Source of the DNA: Planctomycetales bacterium
GTDB lineage: Bacteria > Planctomycetota > Planctomycetia > Pirellulales > S012-138
Direction: 5' to 3'
NCBI GenBank assembly: GCA_015488215.1
Contig: WFOE01000180.1
Span: forward strand, 1 to 40,762
Length of the DNA stretch: 40,762 bases
The notes under the pieces are model-generated. The model did not search any database and was not told the origin of the DNA. It was given only the letters and a program-made list of their open reading frames with translations. The translations under genes were made by a program, and so were the position numbers. Positions 11,284-14,648 of this stretch are shown here, piece after piece; the first letter of the stretch is position 1, and every line of letters begins with the position of its first letter.

Positions 11284-12183
11284 ATGGGACTACTGGATTC
11301 GCTGCGGGGGATGTTCGGTTCCTCGGGGCAGAAGAAACGCAGCCGCGGCAAGGTGGATTTGCGCCGCCGGTTCGAGCTGTTGAAGAGGGCCATCACCGGC
11401 ACGATGAGCCAGTTCTACAAAGCCCGCGACCGCGAAACCAAGGAGGTGGTGGGCCTGAAAGTGCTTGACCCGGAAAAGGTCGCCCGGTTCGAAGCCCGCT
11501 TCAAGGGCCTGAACAAACCGAGCGAAGGCGAAATTGCCGTGCGGCTCCAGCATCCGAACATCGTCCGCACGCTGGAGTACGGCATTTCGACCAACGACGA
11601 GCCGTTCCTGGTGATGGAGTACATCGAAGGGCCGCTGCTCAGCTCCGTCATCCACGGACCGGAACGCCAGATGTTCGAAGGGATGCGGATGCCGCTGGTG
11701 CGGCAGATCGCCGCCGCGGTGAAGGCAGTGCATGACGCGGAGTTCATCCACCGGGACATCTGTCCCCGGAATATCATGATTGACACGGAGCAAGGGCGTC
11801 TGAAACTCATCGACTTCGGCCTGACGGTGCCGGCCACGGAACCGTTCATGCAGCCGGGCAACCGGACCGGCAATCCGAACTACATGGCCCCCGAAGTCAT
11901 CCGCCGCCGCCGCACGGACAAGCGGGTGGACGTGTTTTCGTTCGGCATCACCATCTACGAGCTGATGACCGGCGAGCTGCCCTGGAGCCGCGGCACCACC
12001 GGCAAAGTGGCCATGGAACACGCGACAATCCCACCGCGGGACATTCGTGAGCTTCGGCCGCAGATCCACCCCGTGCTGGCCGAAGCGATCCACTGGTGCC
12101 TGGAACAGGACCCCAAACAACGCTGCCCCGACATGGAACACTTTCTGAAAAAAATCCGCGGGGTGGAGAAAGAGGACCAGTAG
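11284..12183 (+). CDS. Serine/threonine protein kinase, single soluble kinase domain
   Basis: VVGLKVL (Lys), VMEYIEGPLL, HRDICPRNIMID, LIDFGLTVP (DFG), YMAPEVIRRRRTDKRVDVFSFGITIYELMTGELPW. Confidence 0.92.
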   Translation: MGLLDSLRGMFGSSGQKKRSRGKVDLRRRFELLKRAITGTMSQFYKARDRETKEVVGLKVLDPEKVARFEARFKGLNKPSEGEIAVRLQHPNIVRTLEYGISTNDEPFLVMEYIEGPLLSSVIHGPERQMFEGMRMPLVRQIAAAVKAVHDAEFIHRDICPRNIMIDTEQGRLKLIDFGLTVPATEPFMQPGNRTGNPNYMAPEVIRRRRTDKRVDVFSFGITIYELMTGELPWSRGTTGKVAMEHATIPPRDIRELRPQIHPVLAEAIHWCLEQDPKQRCPDMEHFLKKIRGVEKEDQ

Positions 12184-12193
12184 AGAATCCCGC

Positions 12194-12748
12194 TTAGCAC
12201 ACCCGCTGACGGTATTCCTGGCACGCATCCTGCAGCGAAGGAGGGGGCGGGGGAAGTTGACGTCGCTCCTGACACCATTCCCATAACGAATCGACGTGCC
12301 GCTGACATAACCCCGGCGTGGGGAGCCGCGGGTAAGGAGAGCTTTCCTGAACCTGCTTGCCTTCCAAAAAGGCAAACCAGGTTTCGATACTCCATGTGGG
12401 AACGAAAATGGCCACTTTTTCGTCGTTCCCGCGTGGGGCAACCTGCTGGTTATGGCACGCCTGATCCAACTGGTTTTTGCGGGCTTGAACCCCGTACTGG
12501 TCGCCGTCGATGAGGACGAGCAGCCTCAGCGACTGAATGTGCGCGAACCGTGAACGAAACGCTTTCAATTCTTGAGGGAAACGTTGTTGCACAAAGTGGC
12601 TAGCGGCTCCGCGGCCTCCGGGTGCCTTAATGACGCGGATTTGCCGGTGGGAAACTCCCCGCTTTTTCAGAAATCGCCGGACAAACGTTTCCTGCTGCGT
12701 GTCTTCGCAGAGCAGAATCACGTGGACTCGTTTTGCCATGTTTCCCAT
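12194..12748 (-). CDS. TOPRIM-like (DUF4276/OLD-type) putative nuclease, partner of the AAA ATPase
   Basis: VHVILLCEDTQQETFVRRFLKKRG (acidic motif), RLLVLIDGDQYGV (DxD-like), IFVPTWSIETWFAFLEG. Overlaps the ATPase 3' end; alternative start at 12739. Confidence 0.6.
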   Translation of the reverse strand: MGNMAKRVHVILLCEDTQQETFVRRFLKKRGVSHRQIRVIKAPGGRGAASHFVQQRFPQELKAFRSRFAHIQSLRLLVLIDGDQYGVQARKNQLDQACHNQQVAPRGNDEKVAIFVPTWSIETWFAFLEGKQVQESSPYPRLPTPGLCQRHVDSLWEWCQERRQLPPPPPSLQDACQEYRQRVC

Positions 12749-13869
12749 CCCCGTGCCAGAAGTTCAGCCAGCGGCAGCACGTCTCCTGGCTGTACCAGCT
12801 CCGAGGCCCGTTTGGCGCGAATCATTCCTCCGGTTTCCCGATGGAAGAAAATGCCGGAGTCGGGTCCCAAGTAGTTAATCAGTTCCGGATGATGAGAGCA
12901 GAGCACGGCCTGGCGGATTCGCGGCCCGCAGGCTTCTTGCAGTTCCGCGAGCCAGGGCTGGATTTCGGGTAGTGCGACAAAGTTTTCCGGCTCATCCAGA
13001 AACAAAACCGTCGTCCGGTCGTGCAGGAAGGCAAGCAAGGCGTACAGCACCACCAAGGCACGCTGGCCTTCGGACAATTCGTCCAGGTAGAGCTTGGTAT
13101 CTGTGCCCGATTCGCTCCAGCCAAGTTCGACCACCCGGGCATCCCGCCCCAGCAAAGGTAGGCGGATGTCCCTCAGTCCGGGTAAAACTTCTTGCAAGCG
13201 GTTACAGAGCACTCCCAGGGCCGCAGGGTCTTCTTGCACCCGGTGTCGTAGCCAGGAAGCGAAGTTTTCCGCCCGGCGTCCCAGCAACGGGTCTTCGGCC
13301 GTGGATTCGGCACCGATGGCCCAAGGATCGATACCGCAGACCAGCATCCGCTGGCAAGTTTGCAGGAAGGCGGTCAGCTTTTTGTTGTCGTGCCGGGGCG
13401 GAATATTACCAAGGGCCGACTGGGACCAGTCTCCGGAATAGACCGGCCCGGAGGAATGGTCGTCCCGATACAACTGCACCTCGCCTTCGGCGAACCGGAA
13501 CAGCGGAGCGTTTTCCGGCAATTCGATCAGCGATTCGTGCCAGATGCGGGCCTTGCGGGCTTCCTGCTGATGCTGAATCTCCAGGCGGTACCGAACGGTG
13601 CCGAAGTCCAATTCCACGTCCAGTTCAAACGTTTGCAATGGCCGATCTTGCTGCCACCGATTCAGTGTGGTTGCAGGAAAAGCACGCAGGCTCCGGCGCG
13701 AAGCGTCCAGACGTAGCTCGCCTCGCAACAGTCTGGCGATGGTATCGATAACATCCAGCACGGAAGTTTTGCCCGTGCCGTTGGCTCCCAAAAACAGCGA
13801 AAGCTGCGCCAGTTCCAGCTCGAAGTTGACCAGGCACTTGTAGTTGTCGATGTAGATTCGCCGGATCAT
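12718..13869 (-). CDS. AAA family ATPase (RecF/OLD-like ABC ATPase)
   Basis: Walker A LFLGANGTGKTSVLD, signature LSEGQRALVVLYALLAFL, Walker B TTVLFLDEPENFVALPE, H-loop VLCSHHPELINYLG. Confidence 0.92.
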   Translation of the reverse strand: MIRRIYIDNYKCLVNFELELAQLSLFLGANGTGKTSVLDVIDTIARLLRGELRLDASRRSLRAFPATTLNRWQQDRPLQTFELDVELDFGTVRYRLEIQHQQEARKARIWHESLIELPENAPLFRFAEGEVQLYRDDHSSGPVYSGDWSQSALGNIPPRHDNKKLTAFLQTCQRMLVCGIDPWAIGAESTAEDPLLGRRAENFASWLRHRVQEDPAALGVLCNRLQEVLPGLRDIRLPLLGRDARVVELGWSESGTDTKLYLDELSEGQRALVVLYALLAFLHDRTTVLFLDEPENFVALPEIQPWLAELQEACGPRIRQAVLCSHHPELINYLGPDSGIFFHRETGGMIRAKRASELVQPGDVLPLAELLARGWETWQNEST

Positions 13870-14648
13870 TCTTCCTTACCCTTGCTGGACGGTGTGGGCG
13901 AGGACTTTTTCACAGGAGCCGCTTTCCCGGCGGTGTTGGCTTTCGTATCAGCTTTGTCGGCGGAGTGTTTCTCTTCCTTGGCCGGGCCGAACCGGGCCGC
14001 AGCGGCCACGGCCAGCGCCGTATCGCGGTAAGCGTCGTAGGTGGCTTCCAGGCAGCGCAGCTCAATCGTGTAGCGCCGCTGGCCCCGCGTGGTAACCAGG
14101 AAAAACCGCATCAGCCGCTTTCCCTTGGCCGTGGCTTCCCAGCCGTAGCTGACTCCCACGAAGTTGCCTACCTGGACCGGTCGTACCGGCACGGCCAACT
14201 TCTTGTCCCCAAGCCGCTTGGCGGCCGACTTGGCGTACTGCACTACATTGGCCGGCGTAATGTTGGTAAACGCGGCATCGTCGGCGGCCGACACGTAAAT
14301 CCGCGGATAGTTGCCCCGGTGGCAAACCAGCAGATAGTCCGGCATGCGGCGCAGCTCCCAGCCGTCCGGAGTGGGCAGTTCCAGCCGGCCCTGGTCCAGC
14401 TCCAGCGGATCGGTCAGCTTGACCGGCTTGGGCTGAGGGCGCCAGAGCGTGGTTAGCGGATCCTGGGCGGGGGCCTTCCCGGACTCGGGCGACTTTGAGG
14501 AAGAGCCCTCCTGTTTGGTTTCCGAGGAACATCCGGCCAGGAACACCGCTGCCACCATGGCCGCTGCCAGCAGCAGCATCTTGTCCCCGAGCCACCAGGA
14601 GGCACGATTCGCACCACGGGTCAGACGCATCGGTCCCTCTCCTCCCAC
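13866..14648 (-). CDS. Putative lipoprotein of unknown function
   Basis: MLLLAAAMVAAVFLAGCSSE lipobox; Lys/Ala-rich tail; stop overlaps the ATPase start (ATGA). Confidence 0.7.
   Translation of the reverse strand: MGGEGPMRLTRGANRASWWLGDKMLLLAAAMVAAVFLAGCSSETKQEGSSSKSPESGKAPAQDPLTTLWRPQPKPVKLTDPLELDQGRLELPTPDGWELRRMPDYLLVCHRGNYPRIYVSAADDAAFTNITPANVVQYAKSAAKRLGDKKLAVPVRPVQVGNFVGVSYGWEATAKGKRLMRFFLVTTRGQRRYTIELRCLEATYDAYRDTALAVAAAARFGPAKEEKHSADKADTKANTAGKAAPVKKSSPTPSSKGKEE

What the first reader, a model, noticed from the sequence alone, without database searches (positions are those of the whole stretch)
12194..13869. Overlapping AAA-ATPase/TOPRIM-like gene pair: candidate compact anti-phage or DNA-transaction module
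A 383-aa ATPase has Walker A GANGTGKT, signature LSEGQ, Walker B VLFLDEPE and an SHH H-loop. Its 3' end overlaps by 22-31 bp a 184-aa protein with TOPRIM-like acidic motifs (LLCEDTQQE, LIDGD) and WSIETWF. OLD nucleases fuse ATPase and TOPRIM; PARIS (AriA/AriB) splits an ATPase and a DUF4435 TOPRIM protein. Here the small partner looks closer to DUF4276-like proteins, so this may be a separate two-gene variant. The overlap implies coupled translation and a complex.
Basis: partly seen in the sequence, partly recalled or inferred. Interest (0 to 1): 0.65.

Follow-up and report, generated by a model that had tools for sequence, protein, structure and literature searches.

The report
Divergent two-gene ATPase–TOPRIM defence candidate
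Two overlapping bacterial genes encode an ATP-using switch protein and a small nuclease-like partner that always travel together and sit as a removable insert among ordinary genes; they look like a distant, untested branch of a known kind of virus-defence module.

Summary
On the minus strand, a 383-aa OLD/Rad50-like ABC ATPase (13869..12718) overlaps a 184-aa protein by 22 bp from the conserved start (31 bp from the first ATG). The small protein has no Pfam or NCBIfam match. Its confident AlphaFold model gives an OLD TOPRIM domain as the top solved match, weakly (E 6.6e-3). Profile comparison ties it to DUF4276 (score 57 against at most 16 for shuffles) and to RloB. TOPRIM acids E15 and D81 and a further E122 are invariant in 20 sequences. 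All 20 other loci found carry both genes, adjacent, in the same order. The pair is rare and patchy (10 of 297 genomes of the order). It is missing from the same site in a same-genus relative (54 nt against 1,682 nt between the flanking stops), so it is an accessory cassette. DUF4276 proteins are what PADLOC calls HEC-01B, and all 12 examined have a similar ATPase directly upstream, so the architecture is known. The pair's ATPases form their own clade (100/100). Verdict: a divergent variant of the HEC-01/AbiL/PARIS kind, probably an ATPase sensor holding a TOPRIM nuclease in check. Defence function and nuclease target are inferred, not shown.

The parts
12718..13869 (-). Gene A: 383-aa OLD/Rad50-like ABC ATPase (proposed sensor and restrainer)
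   Evidence: Pfam AAA_21 5e-17 and AAA_15 2e-13; PADLOC HEC-01A 3e-25; AlphaFold pLDDT 87, Foldseek PtuA/Rad50 about 1e-13 to 1e-11; Walker A, signature, Walker B and H-loop invariant or nearly so in 11 homologues
12194..12739 (-). Gene T: TOPRIM-like small protein, 181 aa from the conserved ATG (184 aa from the ATG at 12748); proposed nuclease effector
   Evidence: E15, D81 and E122 invariant, D83 19/20, W124 19/20 in 20 homologues; pLDDT 91.6; Foldseek top hit OLD TOPRIM 6nk8; profile match to DUF4276 at 95%
12718..12739 (-). 22-bp overlap of A and T (31 bp if T starts at 12748)
   Evidence: Direct reading; junction survey over 21 loci
13866..13869 (-). 4-bp ATGA overlap between the stop of the upstream lipoprotein-like gene and the start of A
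   Evidence: ORF coordinates; flank table
12159..14000 (.). Interval without counterpart in the same-genus relative G027, where the flanking genes are neighbours; contains the whole pair

Best explanation
The pair is a horizontally moving two-gene immune or toxin-antitoxin-like cassette of the OLD-ATPase plus TOPRIM kind, a divergent branch of PADLOC's candidate system HEC-01 (ATPase + DUF4276). Shown here: two proteins with these folds or motifs, catalytic acids conserved, strict linkage and order, translational-coupling-type overlaps, patchy distribution and empty sites. Inferred from PARIS and AbiL: the ATPase assembles and holds the TOPRIM protein inactive; a phage-made signal changes the ATPase's state; the TOPRIM protein is freed or activated and cuts nucleic acid (host tRNA as in AriB, or DNA as in OLD/GajA) using E15 and D81/D83, stopping phage growth or the cell. 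The overlap keeps toxin and restrainer made together.
For: Pair linkage and order in all 21 loci holding T with a clear match, and an ATPase nearby in 3 of 4 weak ones. TOPRIM assignment: model, Foldseek rank 1 OLD TOPRIM plus other OLD and topoisomerase II entries in the top 50, profile match to DUF4276 score 57 against at most 15.9 in 40 column shuffles and 11.8 reversed, and to RloB 39.5 against at most 17.2, invariant acids. ATPase. DUF4276 proteins are PADLOC HEC-01B, and 12/12 DUF4276 loci have an ATPase directly upstream. Accessory status: 10/297 genomes of the order, 12/392 sampled over the phylum, 1/397 in the phylum of the Acidimicrobiia relative, empty sites for the window and for the aroDE-aroK insertion. 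Defence context: in L042 the pair lies between hsdS and hsdR of a type I restriction operon; in L002 it is next to a phage-type integrase. Mechanistic precedent: PARIS (PMC12409363); AAA-neutralised TOPRIM_OLD toxins and AbiL (PMC10440598).
Against: Most loci, the window included, lie among housekeeping genes and not defence genes. No copy of T was found in phage, viral or plasmid collections. Foldseek for T does not pass E 0.001 and TM is only about 0.38. No experiment exists; the HEC-01 source preprint is not held here, and no validation of HEC-01 was found.
Confidence: 0.72

Rival explanations
1. A selfish or stabilising toxin-antitoxin cassette without a dedicated anti-phage role: T is toxic, A neutralises it, and the pair persists by addiction.
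For: Naked 1.7-kb cassette in ordinary operons; AAA proteins neutralise TOPRIM_OLD toxins in NetFlax tests (PMC10440598); F. nucleatum AbiLii is toxic in E. coli (PMC3985639).
Against: Insertion inside a type I restriction operon, and profile relatives in defence catalogues. The two readings overlap: the NetFlax authors speculate that such pairs are abortive-infection systems.
Confidence: 0.15
2. A housekeeping or DNA/RNA-repair ATPase-nuclease pair recruited for cell physiology, as reported for the archaeal OLD-class protein Cran1.
For: Housekeeping neighbours in most loci; non-defence roles exist for OLD-family ATPases (Cran1, PMC12796447, abstract).
Against: Patchy presence in few genomes, empty sites in close relatives, different neighbours at nearly every locus, and one ATPase copy with an in-frame stop: not what an essential function shows.
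Confidence: 0.08
3. A PARIS-like guard system that senses a phage anti-restriction protein and fires when restriction is blocked.
For: PARIS AriA senses Ocr (PMC12409363); one relative sits between hsdS and hsdR; AriA models match A.
Against: Only one of 21 loci was found with a restriction operon next to it; T shows no match to the one DUF4435 sequence compared.
Confidence: 0.05

Closest known systems
HEC-01 (PADLOC Hma-embedded candidate 01: ATPase HEC-01A + HEC-01B, which here matches DUF4276)
   Same: Gene order ATPase then TOPRIM-like protein, directly adjacent; similar protein sizes; A matches HEC-01A at 3e-25, T matches HEC-01B PDLC04202 at 1.7e-6
   Different: T falls below Pfam DUF4276 detection, whereas most planctomycete DUF4276 proteins tested hit HEC-01B far better, down to 1e-75; the ATPases form a separate clade with support 100/100
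AbiL (AbiLi ATPase + AbiLii, RloB family) and RloA/RloB
   Same: Bicistronic ATPase-first; RloB-type TOPRIM partner; one pair lies in a type I restriction operon, as RloB family members do; A matches AbiLi at 3e-15
   Different: T matches RloB only by profile-profile (79%), not by HMM; RloB-linked ATPases lie outside the pair's clade
PARIS (AriA/AriB)
   Same: Two-gene ABC ATPase + TOPRIM effector
MADS mad3/mad4
   Same: The mad3 ATPase model matches all 11 A proteins (best 8e-22); the mad4 model matches 2 T members weakly
   Different: MADS is a larger methylation-linked system (own knowledge); no other MADS gene was recognised beside the pair in the window
OLD nucleases, Gabija GajA, Septu PtuA
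   Same: ATPase fold; TOPRIM catalytic acids for OLD and GajA
   Different: OLD and GajA fuse the TOPRIM to the ATPase; PtuA pairs with an HNH nuclease, not TOPRIM

Membership tests
TOPRIM domain | Conserved E after strand 1 and DxD after strand 3 on a beta/alpha core | tested here: met
   E15 20/20, D81 20/20, D83 19/20; strands E10-14, E37-41, E75-79, E112-115 with intervening helices
TOPRIM domain | Structural match to solved TOPRIM domains | tested here: inconclusive
   Top PDB hit is the OLD TOPRIM region 6nk8, E 6.6e-3, probability 0.91, TM about 0.38; other OLD and topoisomerase II entries in the top 50, mixed with unrelated folds
DUF4276 (PF14103) | Score above the Pfam gathering threshold | tested here: not met
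   No DUF4276 hit in any of 12 T proteins
DUF4276 (PF14103) | Profile-profile homology with shared motifs | tested here: met
   hhalign 95%, score 57 against at most 16 in shuffles; acids and E-x-W motif align
HEC-01 (PADLOC) | ATPase matches HEC-01A models | tested here: met
   3.1e-25; several HEC-01A models match 9 to 11 of 11 pair ATPases
HEC-01 (PADLOC) | Partner matches HEC-01B models | tested here: inconclusive
   PDLC04202 1.7e-6 over 117 of 184 residues; 5 of 12 members match it at E 0.1 or better; PADLOC's own cut-offs were not available
HEC-01 (PADLOC) | Adjacent genes, ATPase first | tested here: met
   21/21 pair loci and 12/12 DUF4276 loci
HEC-01 (PADLOC) | Anti-phage activity | not testable with these tools
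   HEC-04 of the same series is reported active against T4 and T5 (PMC12111858); no test of HEC-01 found
PARIS | AriB partner of the DUF4435 family | tested here: not met
   No Pfam hit; hhalign probability 0.6% against a single DUF4435 sequence
AbiL / RloAB | RloB (PF13707) partner | tested here: not met
   No Pfam RloB hit; only remote profile similarity, 79%
OLD nuclease | ATPase and TOPRIM in one chain | tested here: not met
   Two separate ORFs in every locus

The most novel reading that the evidence does not exclude
A distinct OLD-type immune module that does not live in defence islands but spreads as a bare two-gene cassette into ordinary operons (for example between aroDE and aroK, or onto the stop codon of a lipoprotein gene), borrowing host transcription and start-stop overlaps, with a TOPRIM effector whose nucleic-acid target differs from those of OLD and AriB.
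Probability: 0.12. Interest if true: 0.6.

Novelty: new variant of a known kind. Interest (0 to 1): 0.42.

Why it matters
It adds an unannotated, well-delimited lineage to the two-gene ATPase-TOPRIM defence kind and links T, DUF4276 and RloB as one group of small TOPRIM partners. It shows that such pairs can lie outside defence islands, where island-based surveys would miss them. If active, it offers a compact system of about 560 residues in all for asking what TOPRIM effectors of the DUF4276 type cut; no paper in the held library mentions DUF4276 at all.

Tried and rejected
Carriage by phages, viruses or plasmids: no T relatives in phage records, plasmids or three viral-contig scans. The two plasmid ATPase hits are about 23-25% identical; only one (H2) was opened, and its listed downstream neighbour is too small to be T. 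Solved-structure search with the T profile gave only designed proteins. DUF4435/PARIS membership of T: no signal, but tested against one sequence. A recurrent third gene: all-against-all comparison of neighbours found none beyond antisense frames of the pair and a few families shared by two loci. A site-specific insertion mechanism using ATGA: 4-bp overlaps occur at one flank in some loci (window, L013, L014, L015, L016), but gene starts are uncertain and such overlaps are common in operons, so I do not claim it. In the first DUF4276 alignment one sequence (L078) was taken on the wrong strand; the comparison was repeated without it and improved.

Full report
OBSERVATION. Both genes are real and lie on the minus strand: A, 13869..12718, 383 aa; T, 12748..12194, 184 aa. 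T's homologous start is the ATG at 12739, because relatives begin at that residue, so the working overlap is 22 bp. In 21 loci the usual overlap is 4 bp (ATGA/GTGA) or 8 bp. The window's is longer because the ancestral ATGA reads ATGG, so A runs 7 codons on to the next stop; those residues are disordered in the model. A's own start overlaps the stop of the upstream lipoprotein-like gene by 4 bp.

WHAT THE PROTEINS ARE. A is an OLD/Rad50-type ABC ATPase: AAA_21 5e-17, AAA_15 2e-13; its model (pLDDT 87) matches PtuA and Rad50 at E about 1e-13 to 1e-11. T has no Pfam or NCBIfam match at E 1. Its model is confident (pLDDT 91.6); the best solved structure is the OLD TOPRIM region 6nk8 (E 6.6e-3), with further OLD and topoisomerase II entries in the top 50. 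No hit passes E 0.001, so this alone is not proof. The profile of T aligns with DUF4276 at 95% probability (score 57; 40 column shuffles give at most 15.9, the reversed profile 11.8) and with RloB at 79% (39.5 against at most 17.2). The aligned motifs are the strand-1 glutamate, the DxD and an E-x-W. In 20 T proteins E15, D81, E122, E135 and S171 are invariant, D83 is conserved in 19 and W124 in 19. I take T as a TOPRIM protein of the DUF4276/RloB group.

LINKAGE AND DISTRIBUTION. T relatives occur in 10 of 297 genomes of the order, 12 of 392 drawn over the phylum (three of these rest on weak partial matches only), one Acidimicrobiia MAG contig at 51% identity and no other of 397 genomes of that phylum. 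All 20 well-matched loci besides the window have A directly before T; three of four weak ones also have an ATPase nearby. The ATPases of these pairs form one clade (100/100) apart from those next to DUF4276, RloB and DUF4435. The loci were chosen by T, so this shows that the T and A lineages travel together. The Acidimicrobiia copy falls inside a strongly supported seven-member clade with the window (99/99), which suggests transfer between phyla; misbinning of that 9.5-kb MAG contig is not excluded.

AN ACCESSORY CASSETTE. In same-genus G027 the flanking lipoprotein-like gene and kinase (the kinase 83% identical) are neighbours with 54 nt between their stops, against 1,682 nt in the window, and no remnant of A or T is found. 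In L016 the pair sits between aroDE and aroK; in same-genus G044 these are about 109 nt apart without the pair, and several other genomes of the family also lack it there. Direction (gain or loss) was not formally inferred, but two unrelated sites and patchy presence favour gain.

NEIGHBOURHOOD. The window is not a defence island: sulfatase, Ser/Thr kinase, MgtC, LUD proteins, acetyl-CoA synthetase and similar genes. Most other loci are alike. A PADLOC scan of 75 neighbours shows little beyond one restriction-type context in the rows listed: in L042 the order is hsdM, hsdS, A, T, hsdR. In L002 the pair lies beside a phage-type integrase.

COMPARISON WITH KNOWN SYSTEMS. PADLOC scores A as HEC-01A (3e-25) and T as HEC-01B (1.7e-6). 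Planctomycete DUF4276 proteins score as HEC-01B, mostly far better (to 1e-75), so HEC-01B covers the DUF4276 family, and 12 of 12 DUF4276 loci have an ATPase directly upstream. The pair is thus a divergent branch of the HEC-01 kind. HEC systems are Hma-embedded candidates; HEC-04, an ATPase-TOPRIM fusion, protects E. coli against T4 and T5 (PMC12111858). No test of HEC-01 was found; the source preprint is not held. In PARIS the ATPase AriA holds TOPRIM AriB and frees or activates it on sensing a phage protein, and AriB cuts tRNA (PMC12409363). NetFlax experiments report AAA proteins neutralising TOPRIM_OLD toxins, and AbiL has the same two-gene layout (PMC10440598).

MECHANISM. Shown by sequence: ATPase motifs and fold, conserved TOPRIM-type acids, linkage, overlap, accessory status. 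Inferred: A restrains T, a phage signal switches A, T cuts nucleic acid. Whether T cuts DNA or RNA cannot be told from these data. About 72% for this reading, 15% for a plain addiction module, 8% for a cellular role, 5% for a restriction-guard variant.

VERDICT. New variant of a known kind; interest moderate. What is new is the lineage, its invisibility to Pfam/NCBIfam and its habit of sitting in ordinary operons; what is not new is the architecture.

Noticed in passing
L016:8786-10452: The pair is inserted in the shikimate operon between the aroD/aroE fusion and aroK, with a 4-bp ATGA overlap into aroK; the same-genus relative lacks it.
   Followed up: yes
L042:363-9984: Type I restriction operon hsdM-hsdS-A-T-hsdR with the pair in the middle.
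   Followed up: partly
L019:8895-10596: The ATPase gene has an in-frame TAA near residue 78, so this copy may be decaying or hold a sequencing error.
   Followed up: partly
L002:909-5069: A 1386-aa protein without Pfam match lies just upstream of the pair in the Acidimicrobiia contig; nature unknown.
   Followed up: no
window:13866-14648: The lipoprotein-like gene carries a Lys/Ser-rich C-terminal tail absent in G027 but similar in G051, ending on the ATPase start.
   Followed up: partly
G004: One relative holds six DUF4276 matches in one genome, suggesting expansion of HEC-01-type pairs in some planctomycetes.
   Followed up: no
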